Shown piece by piece: positions 2,059 to 22,179 of a stretch of DNA of 64,000 nucleotides (the stretch's first letter is position 1; every line of letters starts with the position of its first letter). Source of the stretch: Phascolarctobacterium sp. (GTDB lineage Bacteria; Bacillota; Negativicutes; Acidaminococcales; Acidaminococcaceae); NCBI GenBank assembly GCA_017467905.1, contig JAFUKD010000023.1:1-64000 (forward strand). The letters run 5' to 3'. Below the pieces are notes generated by a model. That model saw nothing but the letters and a program-made list of their open reading frames with translations, was not told the origin of the DNA and searched no databases. The translations under genes and the position numbers were made by a program.

Positions 2059-3549
2059 TTAATGGTCTTTATATATGGGATGTGATTCAAGTAGCTCAAT
2101 TAAATCATCACGATCAATTAGTTGAACTTGATTGACGTGTGCCAATTCAATAGCTTTTTTAGTAAAGTAAGAATTGGTTACGACCATTGTTTCGTTACAA
2201 CCGTAATATGCTTTGGCTCCTAAAACTTCTTGAATAGGAGTATTATCTAATTTAGTATTGTAGCGTTTTGCTTGAACAGCAATTTTACGCCCAAGTTTAG
2301 ATAAAATTAAATCTGCACCTTGATCACCAGTTGATTGAGTAACTTCAGCATAGTAACCCATTTTAGTAAATAATTTTTGTAAGAATGATTCGAAATCAAT
2401 TCCATCCAGTACATCTATGTCTTCAATGGTGTAGTGCCGATTGAACATACCTGTATTGTCAGATAATCCTTGTTCAAGGTTTTCCATATGAGAGGCGATG
2501 GTAATTTCCTCGCGTATTTCATTGAGTTCAAAAGCAATCTCATTTATAGTTTCTATGGAATCCAATTTGAAGTCCATTGCAAAATTATCTAAGAAGTTTA
2601 TTAGATACGTAATATAAGAATTATTTTCTTGAAATATTGAAACATATAGAGACAAGCAACCTTTTTTAGTTATTTGACCATAAGAATTTCTAAGTTTTTC
2701 TGGATATATATCTAAAAAAGAATTATTGAACTTTTCTTGACATAATTCTTCTAATATGAGTTGAATTTCATCTTTAAATTCACTGAAAGTTAAAGTTACA
2801 TCCAAGTCTCCATTTTCTATAATAGTTTTTAATTCTAATGATTGTTCAGATAATCTTTTATCGGCTAATTTTCTAATAGCTTTTATATCTAAAACTGATA
2901 ATGTCGGAATTGACGGCCATGTTTCGTTCGTATTTATAAATTGTACTAGAATATCCTTTAGTAAACTATAATAAACTTTACTTATTTCTTGTTTATTATC
3001 AATGAATAATTTGAATGCATCGACAAAAGAATTATAAGGCATATCATAATCTAAAAAGTTTTTTTCCAATAGATATTTCTTTAGAAAAATTAGGTATTTT
3101 CGTGCCGAACCATATTTAGAATAATATACTTGAAAAAAGAATGCTAGTGGATCTTTTTGATAGTAATCATTACTTGTAAAGTATTCACTAAATTCTTCAT
3201 CCATAGTTCTCATTACATCTTTGTAGCATGCATCTCTATAACTTTTATATAAACTTATAACTTCGTCATGGCTGAAACATAGTTCAGGTTTTATATCATG
3301 TGCAATTATACTTATATATTTTAAAATATGAGGTGGTTGTTCTTGTTGATATAACTCTTGGAAACAGTCAAGAAAAGCAAGTTTTGCTTCTAAATCATCT
3401 TCAAATTCTAGATTGTTGCAGTTAGCGTTATATTTGGGTAGAAAATCATTTATAAATTCATCATAGTTAGATGGTGCAAAAAGGTCATCTTCTTTCTTAC
3501 CAAAAATTGAAGCTAAACTACAATCAAATTGTTCTTGAGACGAGATTTG
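2059..3549 (-). pseudogene. Mrr-like restriction endonuclease, 5'-truncated
   Basis: The C-terminus carries the Mrr/restriction-endonuclease catalytic core: FESFLQKLFTKMGYYAEV, then TGDQGADLIL and KIAVQAKRY, i.e. the D...QxK arrangement typical of type IV enzymes that cut modified DNA. The N-terminal ~380 residues are not recognised. The frame stays open and coding-like upstream of the first ATG (3213) up to an in-frame stop at 3550-3552. No ATG, GTG or TTG occurs in that 336-bp stretch, so the original start appears to be lost. A shortened product from ATG 3213 (384 residues) is possible. The break lies at the left edge of the accessory island, which suggests an insertion or deletion removed the 5' end. 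Confidence 0.65.
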
Positions 3550-3640: not shown

Positions 3641-3748
3641 TAAAACCTATGGCGGGCGGTGTGCTCAGTATGTGGAGCTGGCGATAGAGAAAAGGAAGCT
3701 CATACTCTATTTTTCAGCTGCATTCTCGCATAAAATTGCGAAAATCTC

Positions 3749-3856: not shown

Positions 3857-4066
3857 ATGGCTCTATCTTATAACCGTATGTGGAAGTTACTTGTAGATAA
3901 GAAAATGAGCAAAGCGGATCTGAGAAAGGCCGCAGATATTGCGCCAAATACGATGACAAAACTAAGACGAGATGAATCGGTAAATCTCGCTATTTTAGGT
4001 CGTATATGTGAGACCCTCGATTGTGATTTTGGCGATATTATGGAATATGTAAAAGAGCCAAAATAA
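3857..4066 (+). CDS. XRE-family helix-turn-helix regulator of the BREX locus
   Basis: This is a 69-residue protein, essentially one Cro/CI-type helix-turn-helix. The helices are visible as MSKADLRKAADIAPNTMTKL and VNLAILGRICETLDC. I chose ATG 3857 because AAGAAGGAGAG lies directly upstream; a TTG at 3812 would add 15 residues with no family match. It is the first gene of the defence cluster and points the same way. Small regulators of this kind often sit at the head of restriction or BREX loci and hold expression down (inference). No clear operator was identified. Confidence 0.8.
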   Translation: MALSYNRMWKLLVDKKMSKADLRKAADIAPNTMTKLRRDESVNLAILGRICETLDCDFGDIMEYVKEPK

Positions 4067-4113
4067 AACAATGCAACTAAGAAATCCGAACATCTTTAAG
4101 GGAGTAGTTATGT

Positions 4114-7100
4114 ATGGCAGAGAGGTAGCCGTCCTGGGATAAATATGAAGCAGCCATCCTATTAGAAGGGCTTCTTGCCTCTATAAAAGGCGAACTCACA
4201 CGCTCGGACGCAATTAAGGCAGTATCTCGTGACTTACGGGCAATGGCACTTCATCGAGGTATGGAAATTGATGAAGTGTATCGCAATACAAATGGTATTT
4301 CATTTCAAATGAAAAGCATGGAGTCAGCGTATCTCGGTCACACGGTTTTCAAACCAGCCACCAAACTTTTTGCAGATGTTACAGATTTGTATCACGAATC
4401 CTATGATGAGTACCAAAAATTACTGAAGGAGGCAAGGGCAATGATAAGCGATAGAAAAACCGTTGAAGACGACTTTATGCGATATCTTGCTGAACGAGTG
4501 TCTCCTGTACAGCTTTCGGAGCTTTATAGATGTTATTCTGAAATAGAAACTTTTTGTCAGAAAATAAAAGTCCTACAAAATCCACTGTTCGAGACAACAG
4601 ATTTTGAAACCATTAAAAAAGTGCAACGCACCATCGAACAGAACAAAATCTTCAGAATAACCCGTAGACGGCAAATAAATAAGATTGTTGATGCGGGACG
4701 ACATTACTATAACTACATAAAAGAAGGTTTTTACGCTCACATTACTGATGGAAAGACCGTTGAAGATCGTAGCAGCATCGATCATGAAATGTCCAACCAA
4801 AGCCCGCCCGATGTAGAGATGGCCAAGGCAGAATCTCCTATTACTGCATACACAAAAACCCAGCAAGACGAAAGATTGTTGCAAAAACACCCTGCTGTAT
4901 ATAATCAAATCTATAATGCACTAAAAGCCTCTCACGAAAGCCAGAGAGTCACAATTCGAGAACTATGTGAGGCCATTAACCATACCGCTCGTCCCGCTGT
5001 TGTTGAGGAGATTCTCGATAATGTGAGCTGGGTATCAAATATCGGAGATTCCTACATCTTTTCAGAAAACACTCCTGCGATCGAACCAGATACCTCCAAT
5101 ACGGAGAGCTCACATAGTCAGGACCCAACTTTTGAAATTGATTTTCATGTGGACTTTGACTTGGCGTACACTAAGCCAGAGCGGTTCAGTTACTTTGGTG
5201 AGAGAAAAGCGTGTGGCGATTCGTGGACAGCTCTCTATGTTGCTGTGATGACTTCTGTGATTGAAGATTATCCGCACATATTCAAGCCGGGAATGTCTTT
5301 TGCACAAAAATCTGGCCGAATCGAACTTGCGAGTGATGATAATTACAGTTTTATGATTGCCCCCAAACCTATACCAGGAACAGCATATATGCTGGAAACC
5401 AATTTGAGTGCAAACGATATTGCGGCAAAAATTCGCTATGTCTTGGACTTGTGTAATGTGGACTGCGAAAATATTGTTATCACATATAGAAAAAAAGAGA
5501 AGGAAACTTTTGAACAAGTCCATCAGAGAAAGTCGTTTGAAAACGATGCGATTTGTGAGATAAATAGCAGAAGCTTCTCTCGCTTTCTTTCTGAAACTTT
5601 GAACATGGCTGATGCCACCTGCCGGAGCTATTCTTCTGCGATAAACAATTGTGAGGCATTTGCCCGAGAACACCAACTGGCCTCCTGGCAGCTTTACGCA
5701 ACGGACAAACAAACGGCACAGGAGACAATTCAGTTGCTCTTAAGCAATGCGGAATTTCTTTCCTACAATGCAAGGCAGCACAATCGTTTCCGTGCAGCCA
5801 TACAGAAATTTCTCGGATTTATTGGCTCGGGCCTGACTTGGACTGTACCTGCAAAGGACGATTCGGAACCGTCAGAAACCTACAGAGATGAAAGCTATGA
5901 GGAGGTTCTTAGGCAATACTTCAAGAAGGGATTCCGCATAGATTCGCCTCTTGAGATACGCAAATTCAAGAGGTATTACACGGCAACCCATGATAGGGAG
6001 CTAACTGATCCTGATGATGACATTAGCAAAAAAATTAAGCAGCTCTGCATTATTTACGAGGGAAAAGCATTTCTCCCGGATGTCATGTTGAGCGAAGAAC
6101 TAAAGGACGAATTGCTGAATTACATCGAGACCGCCTTTGTGGACGGTAAAGTCGCTATCTATTATCAAGCGATTTTTGCCGAATTTTCCGATGAGTTCTT
6201 GGACTACCATATCCACGATGCCGATATGCTGAAGTCGTATCTGACTTTTATAGGAAACGGCAGATTCTTCATCAACAGAAGTTTTATATCGAAGACGCCA
6301 GATGTCAATATGGACCCGCTATCTGAAGTTCGTTCTTGCTTGCAAGACTATGGCAGACCGGCGACTTATGATGAGCTTTTCACTGCTCTGCCGCATCTCC
6401 CGCAAAGCAAGATAAAGTTTATTCTTGCCAGCAATGTTGAATTCGTCAACAACGGCCGCAGCGAATACTTTCACGAAAGTATCGTCCATTTGTCCGATGA
6501 AGAACTGGACGGAATTGCCGAAATTATCCAGAGAACCATTGACGAGAAAGATTTTATTGGCGGCAATGAGCTCTATGACGCAATCAGTGCGAAATATCCC
6601 TATATCATAGACGAGAATCACACCCTCTCTATGTATGGATGCCGGGATGCGCTAAAGGCAAAATTAGGCGATAAATTTTCCTTCAAGGGGAATATTATCA
6701 GCCGCTCGGGCCAGGAACTTTCGATGGCAGATGTGTTTGCAAAATATGCGAGAAGTCATGATACTTTCACACTGTCCGAGCTTCAGAGTTTGGCAAATAA
6801 CCTCGCAACTCCCATATACTTTGAGGCGATTTACGAAAATAGCCTGCGAATCAGCCGAGATCAGTTTGTAGCAAAAACTGCCGCTCATTTTCCCGTTGAA
6901 GCAATGGATGAAGCTTTGGATTGTATCTGCATGGGAAAGTATATTCCTCTGCCGGAAGCGACAAACTTCGGCGCATTTCCCTATGTAGGATTCCCTTGGA
7001 ACATCTTCCTGTTGGAGCATTATGTGGCGAGCTACAGTCAAAAATATATACTTTTACACAGCAGCTTTAATGGGACCGAATGTGCTGGCGCAATCGTCAA

Positions 7101-7293
7101 GCGTTCTGCAGGCATTGACAGCTTCGATGACTTAATTGTTGACTTATTGGCAAACAATCAAATAGAGATGAAAAAAGCCCCTGTGCTTCAATTTTTGAGT
7201 GACAAAGGGTATCTTGCCCGCCGTAGATACTCAGAAATAGAATCGCTCATTATCAAGGCGAACGCACAAAGGCAAAGGAAGGACACCGACTAA
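4114..7293 (+). CDS. Large winged-helix protein at the head of the BREX operon, nonsense codon near the start
   Basis: From ATG 4243 the product has 1016 residues. The same frame runs back to ATG 4114, which has a good ribosome site (AAGGGAG, 4098-4104), but is broken at codon 5 by TAG (4126-4128). The codons after the stop (SWDKYEAAILLEGLL, ELTRSDAIKAVSRDLR) continue smoothly into the body and resemble the N-terminal module of many Firmicute defence proteins. So TAG probably replaced a CAG Gln codon, leaving a weak restart at 4243. The middle has a segment like the core-binding domain of tyrosine recombinases (RSFSRFLSETLNMADATCRS). Several winged-helix-like repeats lie before and after it (VRSCLQDYGRPATYDELF). 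There is no catalytic motif. It may supply DNA recognition (inference). The next gene starts one base after its stop. Confidence 0.7.
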
Positions 7294-7294
7294 T

Positions 7295-9655
7295 ATGTAC
7301 TCATACACTTGGGATGCCGAGACGGGCGGATTACTGCTAAACAGTTCCCCACTTTCCTTTAGCAAGGAACCCCGTCCGGTGTATTATAAAGAACTGGATA
7401 TTCTGGGGTTTGACCGGTATTGGAATTATGCAAAGAATGACTCCTACCCATATATGTGGGCGGAGGCTAACAATTATTTCTACCGGGGCTGGCAGGTTGC
7501 CAAGACAAAAGGAGGTAGTCTTTACACGGCACCTGAAATCGTCATTTTGGATGACCCAGAACCAAATGGACAACCTCTCCGCTTTGTTGACATCCCTGCA
7601 ATGGTTGAAAAGAACCGGGATCTGTTAGAGAAACTGGCAGCAGAAACAATTAAAAAAATATACAACACTTATGTAGAATACTTGGACCGAGTCGATGTCT
7701 TCTATGTGGCGTTCAGTGGTGGTAAGGATAGTGTAGTAGCCCTCGATCTGGTGCAGCGGGCTTTGCCGCACAACAAGTTCAAGGTGCTATTCGGTGATAC
7801 GGGAATGGAATTCCCAGATACATACAAAATAGTTGAGCAAGTTGAACGGAACTGTACTGAATCTAAAATTGAATTTTTAAGAGCAAAGTCTGATTTTGAC
7901 CCGGAATTTACATGGAGACAATTTGGCCCACCAGCACAAACAATGCGTTGGTGTTGTAGTGTGCATAAAACTACACCTCAAATTATCTTACTCAGGGAGT
8001 ATACCAATAATCCTCATTTTAGAGGAATGGCGTTCACGGGCGTTCGTGGAGATGAAAGTTCATCTCGGAGTGAATACGAGGGTGTTAGCCACGGAGAGAA
8101 AGTGCGTGGACAGTATAGTTGTCACCCAATCCTTGAATGGAACTCCGCCGAATTGTTTTCCTATATCTATGAGAGACAACTCTTGATAAATGATGCTTAT
8201 AAAAAAGGAAATAGCCGTGCAGGATGTCTTGTGTGCCCGTTAGCCGCATCGAAGAATATGTATTTTAAGGAACAAGCATACAGCTGTAGTGACAAGGGAT
8301 ATCGGACAACCACAACATTCAATAACATTATTCTGGAAACAACTTCCAAAGAACTGTCTGATCCGAGTGCCGTCAAGGAATTTATGGACATTGGCGGATG
8401 GAAAGCACGAAGAAGTGGAAAAGAATTATCATTCGCCAAAAGTTATACAAATGAATCATTTGAACAAGGTGTACTTACAATTCAAGTATCACGTATAGGA
8501 ACTGATTGGAAGCAGTGGATTAAAACAATTGGCAATGTAACATTTCTGGAGAATGGTAATGTCGAAGTGCTTTACAGAGATAAGTTGTATCACATTGAGA
8601 TTGCCGAAAATACCAACGGACTAACTGCCACAGTTGTTATAGGGACGAATACCCAGAAAGACATTTATTTTATGTCCGAATTGAAGACTGTGTTCAGAAA
8701 AACCGCATATTGCATTGGCTGTAGAGTATGCGAGGCGAATTGTCCGCATGGGTTTATTTCTATGAAGGATGGGCATGTAACAATCGATGACCGATGTGTA
8801 AAATGCAAAAAATGTCACGATGTATTCCATGGTTGCTTAGTAGCCAACTCGTTGCGATTACCGAAAGGAGAAAAGAAAATGGGGAGTATTGACAGGTATG
8901 GAAATATGGGTATTGAACTCGATTGGGTTAGGTCGTATTTCAAATTAAAGGATGAATTTTGGACTTCTCCTCACAGCCTTGGGACCAACATGGTTAAAAA
9001 CCTCAAGAGCTTCTTGAACGATGCCGAAGTTACTGTTAAATCAAAATTTGCACCCTTTGGTAAAGTTATTGATAATATTGGAATAGAGAGTTCCGATGCT
9101 TGGGCGTTGATGCTTTGCAATTTGACATACACATCGGAGTTTAATTGGTGGGTCAAAAACATTGATTTTTCTACAACGCACACCCCCGATACCATTTATG
9201 CAATGCTGGATGACTCAATGAGTAAAAATTCTCGTTCACACATTGTCTCCGCATATAAGAATATCCTGATTTCTATTCCTCAATTAAGCAACGAAATTGG
9301 CCTGGGTGTCTGTGACTACACTCTAAAAAACGGAAAGCGTTTTTGGAATAGCGTGGTTCGCATCCCCTGGAAAAATCCGAATCCGCTTGTCATTCTTTAC
9401 AGCTTATATAAGTTTGCAGAGGCTTGCGGGGATTATCACCAGTTCACCTTGTCCCGGCTCTTGAATCATGACATCGAGAGCGATGGTGTTAGTCCTACTG
9501 AGATTTTCGGACTGGATCGCAATCAGATGGAAAAGATTCTCAACGGCCTGACTATCAACTATCCAGACTTTATCAATGCCAGCTTTACGCTTGATCTGGA
9601 TAATATCACACTCAACAGCGAAAAGACATCCCAGGATGTGCTGAGTCTGTTCTAA
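7295..9655 (+). CDS. brxP: BrxP: PP-loop PAPS-reductase-family protein with ferredoxin-type cysteines
   Basis: This is a 786-residue protein and the signature component of type 4 BREX. The PP-loop ATP-pyrophosphatase motif SGGKDS is at residues 141-146. Cysteines typical of the DndC/SspD and PAPS-reductase group follow: CC at 220-221 and CLVC at 311-314. A dicluster ferredoxin-like part follows with C473-x2-C476-x2-C479-x3-C483 and C501-x2-C504-x2-C507-x6-C514. In relatives the PP-loop enzyme activates DNA or another substrate with ATP and sulfur is then added. By family, it could place sulfur on DNA, fed by the desulfurase at 17877 (inference). The last ~270 residues are not recognised. It is transcribed with the genes on either side, with one-base and 13-bp gaps. 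Confidence 0.85.
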   Translation: MYSYTWDAETGGLLLNSSPLSFSKEPRPVYYKELDILGFDRYWNYAKNDSYPYMWAEANNYFYRGWQVAKTKGGSLYTAPEIVILDDPEPNGQPLRFVDIPAMVEKNRDLLEKLAAETIKKIYNTYVEYLDRVDVFYVAFSGGKDSVVALDLVQRALPHNKFKVLFGDTGMEFPDTYKIVEQVERNCTESKIEFLRAKSDFDPEFTWRQFGPPAQTMRWCCSVHKTTPQIILLREYTNNPHFRGMAFTGVRGDESSSRSEYEGVSHGEKVRGQYSCHPILEWNSAELFSYIYERQLLINDAYKKGNSRAGCLVCPLAASKNMYFKEQAYSCSDKGYRTTTTFNNIILETTSKELSDPSAVKEFMDIGGWKARRSGKELSFAKSYTNESFEQGVLTIQVSRIGTDWKQWIKTIGNVTFLENGNVEVLYRDKLYHIEIAENTNGLTATVVIGTNTQKDIYFMSELKTVFRKTAYCIGCRVCEANCPHGFISMKDGHVTIDDRCVKCKKCHDVFHGCLVANSLRLPKGEKKMGSIDRYGNMGIELDWVRSYFKLKDEFWTSPHSLGTNMVKNLKSFLNDAEVTVKSKFAPFGKVIDNIGIESSDAWALMLCNLTYTSEFNWWVKNIDFSTTHTPDTIYAMLDDSMSKNSRSHIVSAYKNILISIPQLSNEIGLGVCDYTLKNGKRFWNSVVRIPWKNPNPLVILYSLYKFAEACGDYHQFTLSRLLNHDIESDGVSPTEIFGLDRNQMEKILNGLTINYPDFINASFTLDLDNITLNSEKTSQDVLSLF

Positions 9656-9668
9656 GGAGGAAGAAGCA

Positions 9669-12600
9669 ATGCCGATGTTGGAAAAATACCGTCATTATTT
9701 CGATATTGACCCAGATTATTTTCCTGCCGTAAATGAAGCGGTCATTACGAAGAACCCAGAAGTGTGGAAAAAATTCTTCCCCCATGAGACCTTTGTGAAA
9801 CTTCTGAAGAACACAATCAGTGTCCTTGAGCGTAAGCAGAAACTCTGCCTGTGGGTGGAGGGAGCCTACGGTACAGGCAAATCTCACGCTGTCCACACCC
9901 TGAAGAAATTGCTGGACTCCAGTGAGGAAGAAACTCGTGAATACTTCCAAAGGCACAAGTTGGATAATGATCTGTGCAACCGCTTCCAGGCTGTGAAATC
10001 CAGTGGTCGCATTTTGACGGTCCATCGCTACGGCTCTGCTACCATTCGTAGCGACCACAATCTTGTTTTTGCTATCCAGGAGAGCATAGAAAAAGCACTT
10101 GTCGATGCGGGAATTGAAAACAAGGGCGGAAACGCACTAAAAGAGGCCACTATCACATGGCTTTCCGACAAGGACAACAGAAATTATTTCAACGGCTTGA
10201 TTACGGGTACATACTCTAACCTGTTCGGTGGAGATGATGCCGATACTGTAATTGAAAAATTACGCACTTTTTCTGGCGATGCGCTGGCGAAGGTTATGGA
10301 CAATATCTTTAAGGTGGCCGATGAGCGTCAAGTAAAAGCGCTCTCGCTGAGCGTGACTGATTTGAGCAACTGGATTCGTGAAGTGATTCGGGCAAACAGC
10401 TTGAAAGCTATTGTCTTTATGTGGGATGAGTTTACTGAATACTTTTACAACAATGCTCGCAATCTCACCGGATTCCAGGAGCTTTGTGAAATCAGCGAAA
10501 CCGATCCCTTCTATTTCGTGCTGGTCACCCATGTTACCCAAGGTTTGTTCCATGAGCGTGACCAGGACTTCATTAAGCTGAACGGACGCTTTGTCAGTCC
10601 GCACAGCTTAATCAGTCTGCCTGAAAATATCGCATTTCAGCTCATGGGTGCAGCTATGGAGAAAAACAAGGATGAAGCCGTGCTCGAAGATTGGGAGCTT
10701 GCTCTCGGAGACCTTACCGCCAGAACACAGGAATCCCGCAAGCTGGTGAAGTCGGTAGCACGCATTACCGACAAAGAGATGGTGGATATCCTCCCGATAC
10801 ACCCCTATGCTGCCCTGCTCTTGAAACACATCTCCTCTGCGTTTGATTCCAACCAGCGCAGTATGTTTGACTTTATCAAGAATGACCGTGGCGATGAAAT
10901 CAAGGGCTTCCAATGGTTTATTGACAATTTCGGGCCGGAGGATGATAACCCGCTACTCTCTGTTGATATGCTTTGGGAATTCTTCTATGACAAAGGCAAG
11001 GAATATCTGGCGCATGATATTCGCTCTATTCTCGACTACTATAACCGTGCCGGGAATCAACGACTTGATTCTGACCAAAAACGAGTTCTGAAGACGGTTC
11101 TTCTGTTGCAGGCAATTTCCCAATACGCCGGCGACTCTGTTGAACTGTTTATTCCCAATGAAAAAAATCTCGACAATGCTTTTGAAGGAACCGACATGGA
11201 AGGCTCCGCAGCGAGATGCGCTGAGCAGCTTGTTCGAGAGAAGGTGCTATTCTCCAAATCCCTCGGTGGCGGAAAATTCCAGTATGCAGCCTACAACTAT
11301 GAAGACGAAATTGATGTAACGCCTTTTGAGGAGCAAATTGACCGAAAAAGCACTTCTGCTTTTATTACGGAGGAACTCGCTGATAGAACTCGAATCGTTG
11401 ACGCTATTACCCTCGGAGGTGCCCTTAGGCTCCGCTATGAGCTGCGCTTTGTTTCTGCTTCCGACTTCGACTCTACGATCAAGCAACTTCGCAACACGGA
11501 AGAAAAGTATGAAAACAAGATTGTTGCCGTAGTATGTTTCGCAAAAGATGATGCCGAAAGTGTTGTCCTAGGCAAGAAAATCCACGATGCCCTTTCTGCC
11601 GGAACTTACAACATGGTTTTTATTGATGCCAGCCGAACCCCGTTGGGTGCGGATGGATACGGCGTATATCGTCACGATATGGCGTTATCTATGTCCCAGC
11701 AAGGAAAAGACCCTGCATTAGTTACTCAGTATGCCAATAATGCAAAGGATTCGTTGAAAAAATGGAAAACCCGCATTGCCGCTGGTGAGTTCATGGTTCA
11801 CACCGCCGATAAGCCAGATGGTGAGCGGGCTACTACGCTTGATGCTCTGTACGGACTTCTCGCAGAAATCAATAAGAAAAAATTTGTGTCCTGTCTTGAG
11901 GGTTCTTACAATGTAATCGCTAATATGTATACACCAAGCAGCCTGAAGCAAGGTGTTGAGTGTGCTTTCAACGAGAAAACTGCCGGAACCTTCCTGTCCG
12001 GCAGTCCTGCCACAAAGTTGGAAACTGCTCTTGATGGCGCATGGAAAGTGCCTCAATACTGGATTTCCAGACCCCATCTTTTGATTTCTAAAATCAAGGT
12101 GTGCGTTGATGAAATCATAAATGATGGCTTCCAGAACGGCGGTGGCCGTGTATCCATTAAGAAAATTTATGATGTTTTGAAGACTGCACCCTACGGTTTC
12201 ATGCCGTGTAATCTGTCGGCGTTTATTCTGGGCTTTGTGCTTAAAGAGTACGCTTCCGGGACATATAGCTGGAGTGACGGACTCACCAACGATGTTTTGA
12301 ATGTCAATAAGCTCAAAGAAATGATTGATGAGGTCATTCGTCTCGAAATTACACCGAATCCTCGTTACAAGGACAAGTATATTGTTGCGATGACCCCTGC
12401 AGAGAAGGCTTTCAACGAAATCACTTCTGTAGCATTTGGTATTCCGCTCAATATGTGTACCTCTGTTCCAAACACAAGAGAACGCATCCGCAGTAAGATG
12501 AAGGAGTTCTCGTTCCCGATTTGGACTTTGATGTACATTCTTGAGAAAGAGACGCTTCAAACAGAAACCGCTGTGCTGTCTGAAATCATCGATTCTTTCT

Positions 12601-13874
12601 GCGGGATTGCCAACAGTAATAACATGGGAGCCGGGACGACTGACAGCGATATTGCCATGGCAATCGGGAATCTTGCCCTCGCCAACGGAAATGCTGCAAA
12701 TGATTTGCAAAGCATTTTGACCAAAGAAAAGTGTACCCAGGGCATGGCTGCCTACCTTGGAACTTTTGAAAATGGTACTCTTGTCTCCCTTGCTGAAACG
12801 GTCGGCGATGGAGGTCAATACATCAATGTCCTTCGCAAAAAGTTCGATGCAGATGCAGCAAACTGGGTGTGGAATGTCGAAACCGCACAACAGAAGATCC
12901 GTGAGGTTATTCTGGAGTATCAAATCATTGTAGAAAGCAATAAGATTACCTCCAAAAGCATCTCTTATGATGCGACCATACGGGAATGGTGTGACAAGTG
13001 TGGGTATATTCGCATCTCCTATGCGGCCGCAAAAAACTATTTCGATGAGTTGGGACCATTCCTCGGGATGCTCTATACCCTGAAAAAAGCCGGAACTCTG
13101 TTGGATTCCCAGAAGCAAACCTTCTTGGAACTTGTTCAGGCTAATGAAAGCACATTCCGCAATTTCTATAATAACCAGGTTGATTTGTTTAAGCGTGTAT
13201 GCGGATACTATCTTGATGATCTGTCGGACGATGAAATTAATGAAGTATTTTCTACAATGCCTGCCGGTTCGTTCACCTGCGAAAAAGCGGAATATTTGAG
13301 CCAAGTCGAGTCCAAAGTTGCCGCCTACAAAGAGGGACAGAAAAATACGCAGTTAAAGAAGTTGTGGAGAGAGAAAACCCGAACAGAGTCTCCCGGGGAT
13401 TGGTCGAAAAAACATAAGATGCCCATTTTGTGCCTTGTTCCAGACAGCGAAGTGGCGAAGGCAAAAGCTGCATTCGGTGCTGTCAATCGTCCAAAGGCCG
13501 ATGAGCAGTCGATTGACCGTGCAATGGAGTACTTTGCTTCTGCAAAATTCTTTGACTTGCTGGATGATGCCGCAGCTTTGGATAAAGCGTTCCAGAGCAG
13601 CATTATTGGAAGCTATTCCGTCATGCTGACGGATGTTCAAGAAGTGAAAGATTACCTTGACTCTCACATCACAGCAGAGCCGTTTGATTGGTTTGGACTT
13701 CCTGAAATTGAAAAGAAGCTTCGCCAGATGGCGGAAGCAAAATACAATCAGGGCGGTTGTGACCGTGCCCTTGCCAAAATTGATGAAATGGATATTGCTG
13801 ATGTGAAGAAGTATCTAAAGGATCTCATTCGGGATAACATGGTTGTTGGCATGGAGATCATCAAAGGGAATTAA
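9669..13874 (+). CDS. brxC: BrxC/PglY-like large P-loop ATPase of BREX
   Basis: This is a 1401-residue ATPase. The Walker A motif GAYGTGKS is at residues 65-72, and the Walker B-like segment is at 247-254 ending in WDE (D253, E254). Length, N-terminal ATPase position and location between brxP and pglZ match BrxC/PglY (BrxC4 type). BrxC is an essential BREX component thought to form a DNA-bound assembly with PglZ; its exact job is unknown. The ribosome site AAGGAGGAAG lies just before the start. No disruption is seen in the frame. Confidence 0.85.
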   Translation: MPMLEKYRHYFDIDPDYFPAVNEAVITKNPEVWKKFFPHETFVKLLKNTISVLERKQKLCLWVEGAYGTGKSHAVHTLKKLLDSSEEETREYFQRHKLDNDLCNRFQAVKSSGRILTVHRYGSATIRSDHNLVFAIQESIEKALVDAGIENKGGNALKEATITWLSDKDNRNYFNGLITGTYSNLFGGDDADTVIEKLRTFSGDALAKVMDNIFKVADERQVKALSLSVTDLSNWIREVIRANSLKAIVFMWDEFTEYFYNNARNLTGFQELCEISETDPFYFVLVTHVTQGLFHERDQDFIKLNGRFVSPHSLISLPENIAFQLMGAAMEKNKDEAVLEDWELALGDLTARTQESRKLVKSVARITDKEMVDILPIHPYAALLLKHISSAFDSNQRSMFDFIKNDRGDEIKGFQWFIDNFGPEDDNPLLSVDMLWEFFYDKGKEYLAHDIRSILDYYNRAGNQRLDSDQKRVLKTVLLLQAISQYAGDSVELFIPNEKNLDNAFEGTDMEGSAARCAEQLVREKVLFSKSLGGGKFQYAAYNYEDEIDVTPFEEQIDRKSTSAFITEELADRTRIVDAITLGGALRLRYELRFVSASDFDSTIKQLRNTEEKYENKIVAVVCFAKDDAESVVLGKKIHDALSAGTYNMVFIDASRTPLGADGYGVYRHDMALSMSQQGKDPALVTQYANNAKDSLKKWKTRIAAGEFMVHTADKPDGERATTLDALYGLLAEINKKKFVSCLEGSYNVIANMYTPSSLKQGVECAFNEKTAGTFLSGSPATKLETALDGAWKVPQYWISRPHLLISKIKVCVDEIINDGFQNGGGRVSIKKIYDVLKTAPYGFMPCNLSAFILGFVLKEYASGTYSWSDGLTNDVLNVNKLKEMIDEVIRLEITPNPRYKDKYIVAMTPAEKAFNEITSVAFGIPLNMCTSVPNTRERIRSKMKEFSFPIWTLMYILEKETLQTETAVLSEIIDSFCGIANSNNMGAGTTDSDIAMAIGNLALANGNAANDLQSILTKEKCTQGMAAYLGTFENGTLVSLAETVGDGGQYINVLRKKFDADAANWVWNVETAQQKIREVILEYQIIVESNKITSKSISYDATIREWCDKCGYIRISYAAAKNYFDELGPFLGMLYTLKKAGTLLDSQKQTFLELVQANESTFRNFYNNQVDLFKRVCGYYLDDLSDDEINEVFSTMPAGSFTCEKAEYLSQVESKVAAYKEGQKNTQLKKLWREKTRTESPGDWSKKHKMPILCLVPDSEVAKAKAAFGAVNRPKADEQSIDRAMEYFASAKFFDLLDDAAALDKAFQSSIIGSYSVMLTDVQEVKDYLDSHITAEPFDWFGLPEIEKKLRQMAEAKYNQGGCDRALAKIDEMDIADVKKYLKDLIRDNMVVGMEIIKGN

Positions 13875-13885
13875 GGAGGTGCAAA

Positions 13886-14233
13886 ATGACCATCCAAGAA
13901 GTCATTAAAAAAATTGACCGTTATCTGAAGAAGGATAATGTCGAACCTCTTATTGTCGATGTTCAAAACAAGGCAGATTTGGACGCTATCATGCTCCATT
14001 ACAAATTACCCCAGAATGTCTTTTTGTGTGCTTCCGACACAGAGTTTTGTAAAGCAGACGAATTTCCTATAATCCCGAACATTCTCGAGCGCCTTACCAA
14101 CGAAAATAGTAGCTTTTTTGTTAGTGAAATTTCGAGTTTCTTCATGTTAAAAGGCGAAAAGGCATTGGTGCAAGAATTAAAAGAACTTCTATCTATGAGT
14201 ATTGCCGGTCATGCGGTAATTCTCACCTTTTAA
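13886..14233 (+). CDS. pglZ: PglZ N-terminal fragment, cut by an in-frame TAA
   Basis: This is a 115-codon frame with a strong ribosome site (AAGGAGGTG) 12 bp after brxC. It ends at TAA 14231-14233, but the same frame continues without interruption into the PglZ body (CAEYLRTLIKNDRRVDSRV...). The sequence across the stop (AVILTF, stop, CAEYLR) reads naturally if TAA was CAA (Gln). I therefore treat this as the first part of pglZ rather than a separate small gene. The restored frame 13886-16216 would have 776 codons. Readthrough or a very recent mutation cannot be told apart from sequence alone. Confidence 0.7.
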   Translation: MTIQEVIKKIDRYLKKDNVEPLIVDVQNKADLDAIMLHYKLPQNVFLCASDTEFCKADEFPIIPNILERLTNENSSFFVSEISSFFMLKGEKALVQELKELLSMSIAGHAVILTF

Positions 14234-14275
14234 TGTGCCGAATATCTGCGCACCCTTATCAAAAATGACCGGCGT

Positions 14276-16216
14276 GTGGATAGCAGAGTTTGTATTTTGG
14301 ATGGAGTACGATCCGTTCGGCCAAGACTTGTTTTTACTGAAGAAGGTATCAAACTCACGGGCACAAGTCCGGCGGTAAAAGGGCTTCGAGGTATGGCTAA
14401 AGCGGTGGAATCAACCACCGCAGAAGTGCTATACATCGAAACCCACAAAAGTAAGGACAGCTACCCATTTTCTCTCTATTCAATCTCAGACCTGAAGAAT
14501 CCTTACGAGATTTTGTGCCACCTGGATGGAATGACAGCTGGATTGGTAGAAGGTTATGGCAGCAAAGAAGAATGGCAGTATGCCCTGGCAGAATTTCAAG
14601 AATACCCTTCGTGGCAACAGCTCATTTCTGCAAAAATAGGGAGTATTTACAATCTGGATATTGTTATCTCTACCTACCAGCAGAATAGTGCAGATAAAAA
14701 ATGGCTTTGGTTGTACTTTATTGGGCTCAAACTGTTCTATGCGGGCAACGACTCGTACTTAAACAAGGCAATAGAGGCAGCTTCTTCCCCGGGGGAGCTC
14801 GTTCACAATTTGTATCGCACTATTTTAGAAGTCGAGCCAACTGATAGCATATTTGCGTCCATATATGAACGCAGAAAAGCACATTTGAATGCCATTGGCA
14901 ACCCGCTCGATGAAGTTAATAATTTCTGCAAGATTGTCCAAAGCAAGGGAAAGTATGCGCTCTGCTATCTAACAGATAATACCATTCAGGAAAAAGAGCT
15001 TATTTTCAAGTTGCTGGATAGGTACAGTGAAGACTTTGAAAGAGCTGAACTTTTTAGTATATTGGAGCGCATCTATCCTGACCTCCGTGCTTACCTGACA
15101 CCATACCGTTTCAAAAACGAATTGCTTGACAGCTATTTCCAAGAGTACAAATATCAAAAGGTTGTCAACAAGATTTTTCCGAACTTCATGGAGGTCGTTG
15201 CGAAGCAAGCAGTCAATAGAGATTACAATATTATTCTTCCGCCCCGGAGTTCTGTGATCGAGAAAATTGATGTAACAAACGCTCAGACTTATTTCACTGA
15301 CGCAATGGGCGTTGAATATCTTGGCTACATTATGTCCAGATGTCACGCCCTTAAGTTGATGGCGAAAATCACAGTATGCAGATGTGAGCTTCCATCCATC
15401 ACGAGCAGAAACAAGGAATTTTGGGATGTGTTATCCACAGAACGGTTCCCGATTATTACCGTTGACAAAATAGATAAAATCAAGCATCACGGTGAAGAAG
15501 GATATGATTATAGTCGTGAGGATAGAAAGCTCCCGATTTATTTGATTCGTGAATTGGAGCTGATTGATGAACTTCTAAAGAAAATCAAAACAAACCTCAC
15601 AAACGGGGACTACCAAAAGGCCATCTTAATCGCAGACCATGGTGCCAGTAGACTTGCAGTCATTCATGAGACTGAAAATCTGTGGGAAATGGAATCAAAC
15701 GGAAAGCACTCTGGAAGATGCTGCCCTAAAAGCGAGGTCGATGAAAGACCAGACAGTGCTACTGATGCGGAAGATTTCTGGGCGCTTGCTAATTATGACC
15801 GTTTCAAGGGAAGCCGGAAAGCTAATGTTGAGGTTCATGGTGGCGCAACATTGGAGGAAATCGCTGTTCCAATTATTGAGATTTCGTATCTTAACGCTGC
15901 CATTGAAGTAAAGATAATGCCGGTTGATTCGACGGCGCTGTTTGTCGGCATCCCCGAAATCACCGTCAGCTTCCGCAAAAAAGCTGCAATTAAAATATTT
16001 GCTACAGAAAAGTTGGTGGATGTCAGCGTTGTAATAGATGGTCATGTCTATGAAGCGAATCCGATTGATGATAATTTCTATGTTGTAGAGGAGATGGCCG
16101 AAATTCGCCGTGCCAAAACATACAGCGTAGATGTATTTGCTAGTGGAATGCCTGTGGCCACTGCCCTTCCTCTGAGAGTAAAGAAGGAAAGCGGCAGCGA
16201 AAAGAGCATTCTGTAA
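14276..16216 (+). CDS. pglZ: PglZ body: alkaline-phosphatase-superfamily protein of BREX
   Basis: This frame covers 646 codons from a GTG at 14276 to the stop. It is in phase with 13886-14233 and separated from it by the single TAA. The PglZ metal-site segment ILIADHGASRLAV is visible, with the Asp at codon 584 of the restored frame (454 of this fragment). It is followed by the late-domain motifs NYDRFKGSR and EVHGGATLEEIAVPIIE typical of the family's C-terminal end. PglZ proteins are phosphatase-fold partners required for BREX. No ribosome site precedes GTG 14276, so this part may not be made alone. BrxL follows 12 bp later. Confidence 0.8.
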   Translation: MDSRVCILDGVRSVRPRLVFTEEGIKLTGTSPAVKGLRGMAKAVESTTAEVLYIETHKSKDSYPFSLYSISDLKNPYEILCHLDGMTAGLVEGYGSKEEWQYALAEFQEYPSWQQLISAKIGSIYNLDIVISTYQQNSADKKWLWLYFIGLKLFYAGNDSYLNKAIEAASSPGELVHNLYRTILEVEPTDSIFASIYERRKAHLNAIGNPLDEVNNFCKIVQSKGKYALCYLTDNTIQEKELIFKLLDRYSEDFERAELFSILERIYPDLRAYLTPYRFKNELLDSYFQEYKYQKVVNKIFPNFMEVVAKQAVNRDYNIILPPRSSVIEKIDVTNAQTYFTDAMGVEYLGYIMSRCHALKLMAKITVCRCELPSITSRNKEFWDVLSTERFPIITVDKIDKIKHHGEEGYDYSREDRKLPIYLIRELELIDELLKKIKTNLTNGDYQKAILIADHGASRLAVIHETENLWEMESNGKHSGRCCPKSEVDERPDSATDAEDFWALANYDRFKGSRKANVEVHGGATLEEIAVPIIEISYLNAAIEVKIMPVDSTALFVGIPEITVSFRKKAAIKIFATEKLVDVSVVIDGHVYEANPIDDNFYVVEEMAEIRRAKTYSVDVFASGMPVATALPLRVKKESGSEKSIL

Positions 16217-16228
16217 GGAGGGATACTC

Positions 16229-17680
16229 GTGACAGAAAAACTTAGAGATTGTTTCGATGAAATGGTTGTCTACAAGGATTTGAAGAAAAGCAATTTCTTT
16301 TCTGCGCTGGGCTTACCATCATTCTTGAGAGATTGGCTACTTAAAAAGTTTGCCGATGATGAAGGGAATCTGGATATAGACGAGCTCACGGATTTCATCC
16401 ACACCTATCTTCCAAATAAAGAAGAATGGATCAGGATTAAAGATAGAATTATTAACGAAAATGAGCGTGTCAAAATTCTCACGAAAATTTCAGTGGATAT
16501 TAGCATCAAAACAGGAGAAATAACATTTTCGCTGCCCGACTTTGGGTTAACAAACAAGGAAACCATGATTGATGTGTCTGTATGGTACCAATACCGTGGA
16601 GAACTGGTCAGCGGACAGGAGGTTTGGGGCGTAGTTGAACTTGGCTATCGTCCTCCTGATGATACTGTGAAGCCTAAAATTCCAGGGAAAATTCGTCTTA
16701 CAGGATTTACAAATTTCTGCCCTTATACCATTGATCTTGATTACTATAAGGATGTGCGAAATGAATTTACAACTTCCGAATGGATAGATGTACTGTTGGG
16801 TGCAATTGACTACAATGCCGGTGGATACGAAAGTGAAGAACAAAAGCTTTCGATGCTAACTCGCATCCTGCCTTTTGTCGAAAAGCGTCTTAATCTAATT
16901 GAGCTGGCTCCGAAAGGAACTGGCAAGTCTTATGTGTTTGGTCATGTGAGTAAATATGGGCTTCTAACAGATGGCGGAAAAGTAACTCGGGCGAAAATGT
17001 TTTATGATACCGCTCGGAAGACTCCCGGTTTTGTTACCGGACATGACTTTATTGCAATCGATGAGGTAAAGCTGGTGCAGTTCGGCGATGTGAATGAAAT
17101 GCGCTCCATCATGCAGGGATATATGGAGTATGGTCAGTTTAACATTGGTGGCTATGAGGGGAAATCTGATGCAGGCATAATCTTTTTGGGAAATATCGCA
17201 CAGGATAATATGGATGAGTATCAGAATATGTTCTCTGAGCTCCCCTCTTTATTCCAAGAAAGTGCATTGGTAGACCGAATCCATGGCTTTATCAAGGGCT
17301 GGGATATACCGAGAATGAATGATGATTTGAAGCTTTCTGGCTGGGCGCTAAACTCTGAATACTTCTGCACGATTCTGCATGAACTCCGCAATGATGTCAG
17401 TTACAGAGCTATCGTAGATCAAATCGTTGATGTTCCAGATAGGGCAGACACTCGTGACACAGAAGCCGTAAAGCGGATTGCTACAGCATATCTGAAGCTT
17501 TTGTTCCCGAATGTGCGGAGCGCACAGGATATCAATCCCAAGAGATTCCAGCAGTATTGCCTCCGGCCCGCTGTTCGTATGCGGAAAATCATTAAACGGC
17601 AACTTGGGATTCTTGATATAGAGTTCAAGGGTAAGGACGTGCCTTCCTTCTCGCTGAAGGAGATTTCATATGAGAGTTGA
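16229..17680 (+). CDS. brxL: BrxL: AAA+ Lon-like protein of BREX (short form)
   Basis: This is a 483-residue protein starting at GTG after AAGGAGGG. Walker A GTGKS is at residues 230-234 (context LAPKGTGKSYVFGHVSKYG) and Walker B AIDE ends at D278-E279. The sequence matches the short BrxL group; longer BrxL proteins carry an extra Lon-type C-terminal region not seen here. BrxL is a ring-forming AAA+ protein of BREX that contacts DNA. The small zinc-ribbon gene overlaps its last 11 bp. Confidence 0.88.
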   Translation: MTEKLRDCFDEMVVYKDLKKSNFFSALGLPSFLRDWLLKKFADDEGNLDIDELTDFIHTYLPNKEEWIRIKDRIINENERVKILTKISVDISIKTGEITFSLPDFGLTNKETMIDVSVWYQYRGELVSGQEVWGVVELGYRPPDDTVKPKIPGKIRLTGFTNFCPYTIDLDYYKDVRNEFTTSEWIDVLLGAIDYNAGGYESEEQKLSMLTRILPFVEKRLNLIELAPKGTGKSYVFGHVSKYGLLTDGGKVTRAKMFYDTARKTPGFVTGHDFIAIDEVKLVQFGDVNEMRSIMQGYMEYGQFNIGGYEGKSDAGIIFLGNIAQDNMDEYQNMFSELPSLFQESALVDRIHGFIKGWDIPRMNDDLKLSGWALNSEYFCTILHELRNDVSYRAIVDQIVDVPDRADTRDTEAVKRIATAYLKLLFPNVRSAQDINPKRFQQYCLRPAVRMRKIIKRQLGILDIEFKGKDVPSFSLKEISYES

Positions 17681-17867
17681 TTGCATTATTTGTGGACAAA
17701 AGAACCTCGACAGAAATACCGCTGGCATCAACAAAAAACTATTAGGTGAAGATATAGAGAATTTCTACTGTATGGATTGCCTTGCTGAGTATCTGGGATG
17801 TACTGTCGAGGAGCTCCTTGAGAAAATTGAGGAGTTCAAAGAAGAAGGATGTAAATTGTTTGAGTGA
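17670..17867 (+). CDS. Small zinc-ribbon protein between brxL and the desulfurase
   Basis: This 65-residue protein has two cysteine pairs, C5-x2-C8 and C34-x2-C37, which fit one zinc site, followed by an acidic helix (VEELLEKIEEFKEEG). It overlaps the end of brxL and lies 9 bp before the cysteine desulfurase, so it is almost certainly co-translated with them. It has no named family that I recognise. A role as a sulfur carrier or an adaptor for the desulfurase is only a guess from position; the extra cysteines C44 and C61 would be candidates. Confidence 0.65.
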   Translation: MRVDCIICGQKNLDRNTAGINKKLLGEDIENFYCMDCLAEYLGCTVEELLEKIEEFKEEGCKLFE

Positions 17868-17876
17868 GGTGGGATT

Positions 17877-19001
17877 GTGAAGCGATTCATTTATGCTGAC
17901 AATGCAGCTACAACACAATTAGATATGGATGCTTTTGAGGCAATGAAGCCATATCTTTTAGGAGAGTATGGTAATGCTTCACAACCCTACTCATTTGCGA
18001 GAACGGCGAAAAAAGCACTGAAGAACTCGAGAGAAACAATTGCTCAGTGCATTGGCGCTGAACCCGAAGAAATATTTTTCACCTCGGGTGGTACAGAGAG
18101 TAACAACTGGGCCATAAAAGGAACTGCATTTTCAGGCTCTACCAAACGCGCTTTCATAACTTCAGTCATTGAACATCATGCAATTCTGCGTCCGTGTGCT
18201 GATATAGAAAGTATGGGGTATCCTGTATCCTATCTCCCTGTTGATTGTACTGGCACAGTGAATGTCGGAACTCTGTCAGAATATATCAATTCTGACACTC
18301 GATTAGTTTCCATCATGACAGCAAACAACGAGATTGGCTCTATTCAGGACATTTCTGCTTTAGCTGCTATTGCACATTCCTGTGGTGCCATCTTTCATAC
18401 AGACGCTGTTCAGGCAGTTGGGCATATTGAAATAAATGTGAATTTGCTTGGTGTAGATATGCTTTCCGCTTCTGCTCATAAGTTTAATGGCCCAAAAGGG
18501 ATAGGTTTCCTGTATGTCCGAAAAGGGACGCCACTGATGTCATACGCAAGCGGAGGTGGCCAGGAACACCACATGAGAGCCGGAACGGAGAATGTTGCAT
18601 CTATAGTTGGTATGGCTACTGCACTAAAAAAGAATGTATCTGCAATGAAAGATACAGCGTCGCATTTAGCTTTGCTAGAAAACAGATTGCTTGTAGGGTT
18701 GTCTAATGCAAATATACGATTCTCCCGAAATGGGAGCGAGGTGCATATTCCCGGAAATTTAAGCCTTTCCTTCCCTGGCTATAGCGGCGAAGCCCTTTTG
18801 CACCGATTAGATTTAATGGGAATTTGTGTTTCTACCGGCTCTGCTTGTAATAGCAAAGAAACTCAGATATCTCACGTATTACAGGCTATTGGTCTGAAAC
18901 CAGATCTGGCAAAGGGAACTATACGATTGTCGTTTGGAAGAAACAATTCTGAAAATGATGTCGATATAATTGTTGAATCACTTCAGCGAATTTTTAGATA
19001 A
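17877..19001 (+). CDS. Cysteine desulfurase (NifS/IscS/DndA class) in the BREX operon
   Basis: This is a 374-residue class V aminotransferase-fold enzyme that takes sulfur from L-cysteine as a persulfide. PLP-binding Lys is K202 in SAHKFNGPKG, and the persulfide Cys is C324 in STGSACNSKET, the spacing expected of NifS/IscS-group I enzymes. FTSGGTESNNWAIKG and GGGQEHHMRAGTENV are also conserved. GTG start after GTGAGGTGGG. It closes the BREX operon on the left side of the IS256 element. Its presence beside BrxP mirrors DndA-DndC and SspA-SspD pairings in DNA phosphorothioation systems, so it probably supplies sulfur to BrxP. A general Fe-S role for BrxP's clusters is the alternative. Confidence 0.88.
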   Translation: MKRFIYADNAATTQLDMDAFEAMKPYLLGEYGNASQPYSFARTAKKALKNSRETIAQCIGAEPEEIFFTSGGTESNNWAIKGTAFSGSTKRAFITSVIEHHAILRPCADIESMGYPVSYLPVDCTGTVNVGTLSEYINSDTRLVSIMTANNEIGSIQDISALAAIAHSCGAIFHTDAVQAVGHIEINVNLLGVDMLSASAHKFNGPKGIGFLYVRKGTPLMSYASGGGQEHHMRAGTENVASIVGMATALKKNVSAMKDTASHLALLENRLLVGLSNANIRFSRNGSEVHIPGNLSLSFPGYSGEALLHRLDLMGICVSTGSACNSKETQISHVLQAIGLKPDLAKGTIRLSFGRNNSENDVDIIVESLQRIFR

Positions 19002-19151
19002 CATGGTCTATGGAGGACGCTCTTTAACGAGATGGGCATGAAAAAAATAGGAGAGTGTAAAATAAAGTGTGTAAGTTACCGGTAACAAAAACTTACGCAC
19101 TTTATTTTTATTTTAAAGTGCGGTACACTAAACGAAAGGATGAAAGGATTT

Positions 19152-20410
19152 ATGAGTACAGCACTTATAGCACCAAGGAAAAAACGTAATACCAAAGGAG
19201 CAGCGATTGCCCAGGCAATCTTAGAACAGTACCAGCCAAAAAACAGAGAGGAAATGCAGGCTGCCATTAAGGATACTTCGGCCCCATGTTTGAAGCCATG
19301 CTGCAAGGGGAGATGGATGCCCATCTGGGCTATGAGTCCAACGACCATGGGTACAAAGAAACCGATAACCGCCGGAATGGCTATATAGCAAAAAACGTAA
19401 AGACTTCTTACGGAGAGATTCCTGTGGAAGTTCCACGGGATCGCCAGGCTACTTTTGAGCCGCAGGTTATTCCCAAAAGGACACGGGATATCAGCGGAAT
19501 TGAGGATAAAGTCATGTCCATGTACGCCCGGGGCATGAGCCAGCGGGACATTGCGGATACCATAGAGGATATCTATGGGGTTGAGATATCTCATGAAACT
19601 ATTTCCAGCATTACGGACCGAGTCATTGAGACCGCAGAGGAATGGCAAAATCGTCCGCTCAAAAAGTTTTACACTTTTTTATTTGTGGATTGCCTGTATG
19701 TTTCTATCCGCAAGGAAATGGAGACAAAAAGTTGCGCAGTCTATGTAATTCTGGGGTATGATGTAAATGGCATCAAGGATGTCCTGGGTTTATGGATAGG
19801 AGAGGCAGAAGGGAAACACTATTGGATGCAGATATTTGACGAGATCAAAGCCCGGGGCGTGGAAGACGTACTGTTTATCAGCATGGATGGAGTATCCGGT
19901 CTGGAGGAAGGTGCAAAATCCTTTTTTAAAGATGTCACTGTACAGCGCTGTATCGTGCACTTGATCCGCAACTCCATTAAATACATTCCTTCCAAAGACT
20001 ACAAGGCCTATACGGCACAGCTACGGAAAGTCTATGGAGCCGCCAGCCTGAAGGCTGCAGAGGCTGAATTTGAGCGTTTCAAGCAGGCGTGGAGCCAGTA
20101 TCCGGGAGCTGTAGACGTATGGGTACGGAACTGGAAATATGTGGAGCAACTGTTCAATTACGGGAGCGCGGTGAGAAAAGTCATGTATACGACCAATGCC
20201 ATAGAAGCAGTCAATTCCAGTTTCAGGAAAGTTACTAAAAAAGGTTCCTTCCCCAGCGAGGAGGCAGTGAGGAAGGCTCTGTATCTGCGGATCACAGAGC
20301 TTTACAAAAAATGGAATAGCCGCCCGGTATCTAACTGGTCCATGGTGCGCAACCAGCTTTCCATGGATGACAAGATGCAGGCCCGGATCATGAAATATGA
20401 AAATTTTTAA
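19152..20410 (+). pseudogene. IS256-family transposase with a single-base frameshift
   Basis: The first part (from ATG 19152: MSTALIAPRKKRN ... EEMQAAIKDT) and the main part (from 19286: MFEAMLQGEMDAHLGYE ...) are adjacent regions of one mutator-type transposase of about 420 residues. They are in different frames. One missing T near 19278-19281 explains the switch, as an added base restores a natural DTFGPMFEAML joint. The rest, including the catalytic region (VLFISMDGVSGLEEG) and the C-terminal TTNAIEAVNSSFRK motif, is intact. It is therefore inactive unless the missing base is a consensus error or frameshifting occurs. Confidence 0.8.
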
Positions 20411-22160: not shown

Positions 22161-22179
22161 AGGGAAAGGAATTGAATTT

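What the first reader, a model, noticed from the sequence alone, without database searches (positions are those of the whole stretch)
3857..19001. Type 4 BREX operon with BrxP plus a cysteine desulfurase: possible sulfur-based DNA marking
BrxP (PP-loop SGGKDS 141-146 and eight ferredoxin-type Cys) is co-transcribed with a desulfurase carrying K202 and C324. The layout parallels DndA-DndC and SspA-SspD, where the DNA backbone gains sulfur. No methyltransferase is in the operon. The combination of BrxP-BrxC-PglZ-BrxL with a dedicated zinc-ribbon and desulfurase pair is the most unusual system in the window.
Basis: partly seen in the sequence, partly recalled or inferred. Interest (0 to 1): 0.8.

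Follow-up and report, generated by a model that had tools for sequence, protein, structure and literature searches.

The report
Broken copy of known sulfur-marking BREX
This is a gut-bacterial copy of type 4 BREX, an anti-phage system already known to put sulfur into the DNA backbone; it carries its own sulfur-supplying enzyme as most close relatives do, but this copy has stop codons in two of its genes and probably does not work, and comparing relatives shows that the middle of its sulfur-inserting protein is swapped as a block, like a target-recognition cartridge.

Summary
The operon is real: regulator, large winged-helix protein 'U', brxP, brxC, pglZ, brxL, zinc ribbon, cysteine desulfurase (window 3857-19001). 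PP-loop SGGKDS at 141-146, eight ferredoxin cysteines, K202 and C324 are confirmed and invariant in relatives. Sulfur-based marking by type 4 BREX is already published, as are the desulfurase and zinc finger (NAR 2026, gkag035; Yuan et al. 2024, cited there), so the idea is right but not new. No suppressor tRNA was found and neither restart has a ribosome-binding site. Points I did not find in the papers I could read: U's winged-helix core lies upstream of brxP in all 51 assessable related loci, but in only half of type 4 loci at large; BrxP residues ~175-690 are exchanged as a cassette between otherwise near-identical operons (AU p = 2.8e-8), suggesting they set sequence specificity.

The parts
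3726..3741 (.). 16-bp palindrome TCGCATAAAATTGCGA upstream of the regulator; likely operator at the left end of the conserved cassette
   Evidence: identical 16 bp in L022, L024, L026 and L031 while the sequence to its left diverges; function inferred
3857..4066 (+). 69-aa Cro/C1-type HTH regulator
   Evidence: Pfam HTH_26 E = 9e-20; 97-99% identical in L022, L024, L026, L031
4114..7293 (+). gene U: large protein with conserved C-terminal winged-helix core; interrupted by TAG 4126-4128 at codon 5; ORF without a ribosome-binding site from ATG 4243
   Evidence: upstream of brxP in 51 of 51 related loci with an assessable ORF
5863..7290 (+). U conserved core (~455 aa), predicted chain of winged-helix domains
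   Evidence: AlphaFold2 mean pLDDT 92; Foldseek/VIA matches to winged-helix arrays (SelB 1lva) and single winged helices; no relevant Pfam or PDB sequence match
7295..9655 (+). brxP: PP-loop/PAPS-reductase domain, DUF1795-like region, 2[4Fe-4S] ferredoxin-type domain, DUF4007-like winged-helix C-terminus
   Evidence: PADLOC BrxP E = 1e-233; PAPS_reduct E = 7e-29; DUF4007 E = 6e-4, below Pfam's cut-off; model pLDDT 88 with PAPS/APS reductase, TtuA and LarE as fold matches; DUF1795-like label from NAR 2026
7815..9362 (+). exchangeable middle of brxP (about residues 175-690)
   Evidence: 36-64% DNA identity to L031 inside, 92-98% outside; trees conflict, AU p = 2.8e-8; same boundaries in L029; same core/flank mismatch in a Selenomonadaceae group
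9669..13874 (+). brxC AAA+ ATPase
   Evidence: PADLOC BrxC E = 3e-287; also matches SspC at E = 1e-17
13886..16216 (+). pglZ, interrupted by in-frame TAA at 14231-14233 (codon 116)
   Evidence: both halves match one Pfam family, DUF7864, in sequence; NF033445 match with 1 TAA inside; sense codon in 25 of 25 relatives
16229..17680 (+). brxL
   Evidence: PADLOC BrxL E = 1e-215; TIGR02688 E = 2e-125
17670..17867 (+). 65-aa zinc-ribbon protein, CxxC...CxxC plus a fifth invariant Cys61
   Evidence: present in 36 of 36 testable loci
17877..19001 (+). cysteine desulfurase, PLP Lys202, persulfide Cys324
   Evidence: DndA E = 1e-130 and SspA E = 6e-130, NifS 434 bits but below NCBI's equivalog cut-offs; separate clade from 28 housekeeping desulfurases

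Best explanation
A type 4 BREX cassette of the desulfurase-bearing lineage. In its working form the desulfurase takes sulfur from cysteine (persulfide on C324). The sulfur goes to BrxP, possibly through the co-encoded zinc-ribbon protein. BrxP uses its PP-loop to activate a DNA backbone phosphate and its iron-sulfur clusters (an APS-reductase-like CC/CxxC set and a ferredoxin-type set) to insert sulfur, giving a phosphorothioate. BrxC and the winged-helix domains of BrxP and U place the machinery on DNA, with the exchangeable middle of BrxP setting the target sequence. PglZ and BrxL act against unmarked phage DNA. The copy in this window has nonsense codons in pglZ and U and is probably not a working defence. 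Shown here: gene content, conserved catalytic residues, dedicated desulfurase clade, the nonsense codons, the BrxP exchange. Published elsewhere: phosphorothioate synthesis by type 4 BREX. Inferred: order of sulfur transfer, role of the zinc ribbon and U, specificity role of the exchanged block, inactivity of this copy.
For: Family matches; papers stating that type 4 BREX replaces methylation by phosphorothioation and that 255 of 457 taxa have a desulfurase, often with a small zinc finger, and listing brxPCZL among PT synthesis families; desulfurase in 33 of 36 and zinc ribbon in 36 of 36 related loci; BREX desulfurases one side of a 99/100 branch against 28 housekeeping copies, while the host keeps its own desulfurase at 44% identity; catalytic residues invariant; nonsense codons, no suppressor anticodon among the tRNAs found, no Shine-Dalgarno before the restarts while every other cassette gene has one; BrxP exchange.
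Against: Nothing here measures sulfur in DNA. The nonsense codons come from one assembly without reads. The rest of the operon (brxP, brxC, brxL, desulfurase) shows mostly synonymous changes on the window's branch, so inactivation, if real, is recent or partial. In 3 of 36 loci the zinc ribbon persists without the desulfurase, so the two are not a strict pair.
Confidence: 0.82

Rival explanations
1. The desulfurase mainly builds the iron-sulfur clusters of BrxP, and the sulfur put into DNA comes from another donor.
For: BrxP carries 12 invariant cysteines in cluster-type motifs; PP-loop sulfurtransferases with [4Fe-4S] clusters (TtuA, LarE) are among its fold matches; DndA is reported to assemble an Fe-S cluster on DndC (title of a reference listed).
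Against: The host already has a NifS/IscS-type desulfurase, yet a dedicated clade is kept in 33 of 36 loci. Both roles can coexist.
Confidence: 0.3
2. The operon in this genome is functional despite the stop codons, because they are assembly or consensus errors, or because PglZ works as two pieces.
For: Purifying-type substitution pattern in the rest of the operon; conserved PglZ residues all lie in the second half, which stays open.
Against: The U stop needs two base changes in one codon (CAA to TAG) and the pglZ stop is an independent change; no ribosome-binding site before GTG 14276 or ATG 4243; no suppressor tRNA found.
Confidence: 0.25
3. The desulfurase is an unrelated or housekeeping gene that happens to lie next to BREX.
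For: It scores nearly as well against NifS as against DndA/SspA, and 3 of 36 loci lack it.
Against: Same position in 33 of 36 loci across several phyla, one clade separate from housekeeping copies, short spacing and its own ribosome-binding site.
Confidence: 0.04
4. The mark is not a phosphorothioate but another sulfur adduct, for example a thiolated base.
For: PP-loop enzymes such as TtuA thiolate RNA bases (fold match).
Against: Type 4 BREX is listed as a phosphorothioate synthesis system in papers that cite experimental work.
Confidence: 0.05

Closest known systems
Type 4 BREX (brxPCZL); PT synthesis reported by Yuan et al. 2024 (cited in PMC12839542 and PMC11931770)
   Same: brxP-brxC-pglZ-brxL in the same order, no methyltransferase; BrxP with PAPS-reductase, ferredoxin-type and DUF4007-like parts; desulfurase plus zinc finger as described for 56% of taxa
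   Different: U is not named as a component in the text I could read; this copy has nonsense codons in pglZ and U
SspABCD phosphorothioation
   Same: desulfurase (SspA) plus PP-loop enzyme (SspD); BrxC matches SspC and BrxP matches SspD profiles
   Different: separate gene set; PglZ and BrxL instead of SspE/SspFGH; DUF4007 part fused to the PP-loop protein
DndABCDE phosphorothioation
   Same: DndA-like desulfurase; PP-loop protein with weak DndC match (E = 2e-6)
   Different: no dndB, dndD or dndE found among the cassette genes; BrxP far from DndC
Assimilatory APS reductase (2goy)
   Same: PP-loop fold and a CC ... CxxC cysteine set (220-221, 311-314) as in [4Fe-4S] APS reductases (cluster motif from general knowledge); best PDB sequence match E = 6e-6
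   Different: BrxP has added DUF1795-like, ferredoxin and winged-helix domains and a DNA substrate
HsdS/TRD exchange in type I restriction systems (from general knowledge)
   Same: block exchange between conserved flanks in an otherwise conserved operon
   Different: here the block includes half of the catalytic PP-loop domain and the ferredoxin domain; effect on specificity untested

Membership tests
Type 4 BREX | BrxP (PAPS-reductase-like) in place of a methyltransferase | tested here: met
   BrxP E = 1e-233; no cassette gene matched a methyltransferase
Type 4 BREX | BrxC, BREX-4-type PglZ and BrxL in one operon with BrxP | tested here: met
   E = 3e-287, 1e-112, 1e-215; pglZ recognisable but interrupted
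Type 4 BREX | all core genes intact (a test of function in this genome, not of descent) | tested here: not met
   TAA within pglZ, sense codon in 25 of 25 relatives. The locus is a member by descent; a working system in this genome is not claimed
Type 4 BREX | DUF4007 / BrxA-like DNA-binding part | tested here: met
   BrxP C-terminus matches PF13182 at E = 6e-4, below the curated cut-off, and PADLOC PDLC02511; winged-helix elements in the model
Type 4 BREX | phosphorothioate in host DNA | not testable with these tools
   needs mass spectrometry or PT-seq
DndA/SspA-like cysteine desulfurase | PLP lysine and persulfide cysteine | tested here: met
   K202 and C324, 36 of 36
DndA/SspA-like cysteine desulfurase | membership in the DndA equivalog | tested here: not met
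   337 bits against TIGR03235 cut-off 480; NifS 434 bits against 531: a DndA/NifS-like relative in its own BREX clade
Dnd system | dndB/C/D/E genes | tested here: not met
   no DndB/D/E match among the cassette proteins scanned
Ssp system | sspB, sspC, sspD with sspE or sspFGH | tested here: not met
   only cross-matches of BrxC and BrxP to SspC and SspD; best matches are BREX models

The most novel reading that the evidence does not exclude
The middle of BrxP (residues ~175-690: second half of the PP-loop domain, DUF1795-like region, ferredoxin domain and first winged-helix modules) is an exchangeable cassette that sets which DNA sequence receives sulfur, so that type 4 BREX changes specificity by swapping the catalytic protein's core, while U is an additional, unnamed DNA-handling component of about half of type 4 BREX loci.
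Probability: 0.5. Interest if true: 0.6.

Novelty: new member of a known kind. Interest (0 to 1): 0.35.

Why it matters
The headline idea is already established, so this locus adds little by itself. What would matter is the comparison around it: it offers natural allele swaps in otherwise near-identical operons, which would make the question of what sets the phosphorothioate target sequence in BREX directly testable; it points to a large winged-helix protein that sits next to brxP in every related locus that could be judged; and it warns that the window's own strain is probably unsuitable for a modification assay, naming intact isolates instead.

Tried and rejected
Alternative genetic code (TAA/TAG = Gln): rejected, because the cassette genes end with TAA or TGA at their expected ends and no suppressor anticodon was found among 45 of 46 tRNA hits. 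Spread of the cassette by plasmid or phage: no plasmid match to brxP DNA; phage records give only distant PAPS-reductase matches plus two unannotated faecal records with full-length but 32-44% identical BrxP; viral contigs gave only 36-48% identical desulfurases. U as a member of a known family: no significant Pfam or PDB sequence match; structure matches are generic winged helices, so no function is claimed from them. U as a universal type 4 component: rejected, 7 of 14 genomes with a BREX-4 PglZ over cut-off have it beside the system, and several loci lack it. Yuan et al. could not be read; its content is taken from papers that cite it.
Full report
What is there. ORF and family searches confirm an eight-gene cassette on the + strand of window 3857-19001: an HTH regulator, a large protein here called U, brxP, brxC, pglZ, brxL, a 65-residue zinc ribbon and a cysteine desulfurase. 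These residues are invariant among the relatives collected (52 BrxP, 36 desulfurases). No cassette gene matched a methyltransferase. BrxP also has an invariant Cys-Cys at 220-221 and CxxC at 311-314; that set resembles the cluster motif of APS reductases (general knowledge), and an APS reductase is its best PDB sequence match and among its top fold matches.

pglZ is one reading frame cut by TAA at 14231-14233. In 25 relatives the position is always a sense codon, Gln in about half of them and in all close ones. Among 45 loci (the window included) where PglZ could be judged, only the window and L034 show it split into two adjoining frames; I read the other low-coverage cases as shorter PglZ proteins of one lineage. 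U should start at ATG 4114 but has TAG at codon 5 (4126-4128), where L022, L031, L024 and L026 have CAA. The next usable start codons, GTG 14276 and ATG 4243, lack ribosome-binding sites, while every other cassette gene has one. Of 46 tRNA hits in the genome, 45 were typed and none reads a stop codon. On the window's branch brxP, brxC, brxL and the desulfurase changed mostly at synonymous sites (57/9, 61/21, 60/6, 17/2 synonymous/nonsynonymous codons), pglZ and U less so (31/19, 36/24), but those two also evolve faster in other lineages. I conclude that the copy is probably, and recently, disabled; this rests on one assembly.

Is the desulfurase part of the system? A genome scan with BrxP gave 56 related loci. 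Of 36 that extend at least 1.5 kb past brxL, 33 have the desulfurase and all 36 the zinc ribbon; L027, L052 and L058 keep the ribbon without the desulfurase. So the zinc ribbon goes with BREX more closely than with the desulfurase. A tree puts 34 BREX desulfurases, from Bacillota, Spirochaetota, Bacteroidota, Fibrobacterota, Verrucomicrobiota and Mycoplasmatota, on one side of a 99/100 branch, and 28 desulfurases from the host and its relatives on the other. The host has its own second desulfurase at 44% identity.

What is already known. The NAR 2026 survey (PMC12839542) states that type 4 BREX uses phosphorothioate modification in place of methylation, that BrxP carries PAPS-reductase, DUF1795-like, ferredoxin-type and DUF4007 parts, and that a DndA-like desulfurase occurs in 255 of 457 taxa, often with a small zinc finger. 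A 2025 paper (PMC11931770) lists brxPCZL among the PT synthesis families, citing Yuan et al. 2024, which I could not open. From memory, that work validated PT synthesis genetically in Bacteroides salyersiae.

U. The ~455-residue C-terminal core of U was found directly upstream of brxP in 51 of 51 related loci with an assessable ORF; the N-terminal part varies. AlphaFold2 predicts a string of winged-helix domains (mean pLDDT 92), with generic winged-helix matches including the SelB array. In a sample of 398 genomes of the phylum, 14 had a BREX-4 PglZ over the curated cut-off, and 7 of them had the U core beside it. In the loci without U that I examined the desulfurase was not found either, and one has a sigma-70 factor gene at that place. 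U is thus typical of one branch of type 4 BREX. I did not find it named in the main text of the NAR survey; supplements were not available.

Exchange in BrxP. The window and L031 (a Faecalibacterium assembly) are 92-98% identical over most of the cassette, but 36-64% from 7815 to 9362, that is BrxP residues about 175-690. The flanking parts of BrxP group L031 with the window's cassette (99/96); the middle groups it with L037 (100/100), and forcing the window's group together is rejected (AU p = 2.8e-8). L029 shows the same boundaries with a different source, and Selenomonadaceae loci show the same contrast, for example L067-L047: flanks 96%, middle 69%, BrxC 93%, BrxL 98%. In the model (pLDDT 88) the block begins inside the PP-loop domain and ends between the earlier and the last winged-helix elements. 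By analogy with specificity-subunit exchange in type I restriction systems, the simplest reading is that this block sets the target sequence. That is inference. U and BrxP vary independently: L024/L026 differ in U (4727-5556) while BrxP is 96% identical.

Mobility. The conserved unit runs from about 3722 to 18976-19033 with unrelated flanks. A 16-bp palindrome upstream of the regulator is identical in five cassettes. L024 and L026, from different genera, share flanking genes whose products look like relaxase and coupling proteins; L022 and L031 share genes whose products look like tyrosine recombinases (judged by eye from the sequences). No plasmid carried a similar brxP.

Verdict. A damaged member of a known kind. 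The interest lies in the natural BrxP swaps and in U, not in the sulfur hypothesis itself.

Noticed in passing
window 2059-3213 (-): Mrr-type restriction endonuclease gene (Mrr_cat E = 8e-30) upstream of the cassette on the opposite strand; Mrr-like enzymes can act on modified DNA, so the pairing may matter.
   Followed up: no
window 22066-23646 (+): Schlafen/AlbA_2 plus HATPase_c_4 protein about 3 kb past the desulfurase; the NAR 2026 survey reports Schlafen-type RNases linked to BREX loci.
   Followed up: no
window 19286-20410 (+): IS256-family transposase immediately after the desulfurase, at the right edge of the conserved cassette.
   Followed up: partly
L135:5532-13859 and L137:2834-11046: Proteins of 1156 and 1135 aa with U-like winged-helix repeats and a sigma-70 region 4 head similarly laid out operons; in L135 the next genes are a ResIII helicase and an SbcC-like AAA protein: looks like a defence-type operon I could not name.
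   Followed up: partly
L132:15626-17107 (-): A sigma-70 factor gene lies 28 bp upstream of brxP in a type 4 BREX locus without U.
   Followed up: no
window 17670-17867: The zinc-ribbon protein has a fifth invariant cysteine, C61 (43 of 43), outside the four ribbon cysteines; possible sulfur carrier.
   Followed up: no
L024, L023 and L034: U ends early near its C-terminus in L024 (the near-identical L026 is open), has stop codons in L023, and pglZ is split in L034: damage to U recurs among near-identical cassettes.
   Followed up: partly
record MT835511.1, 16015-18288: A faecal record labelled 'Bacteriophage sp.' encodes a full-length BrxP at 43.5% identity; phage-borne BREX or a mislabelled bacterial contig.
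   Followed up: no
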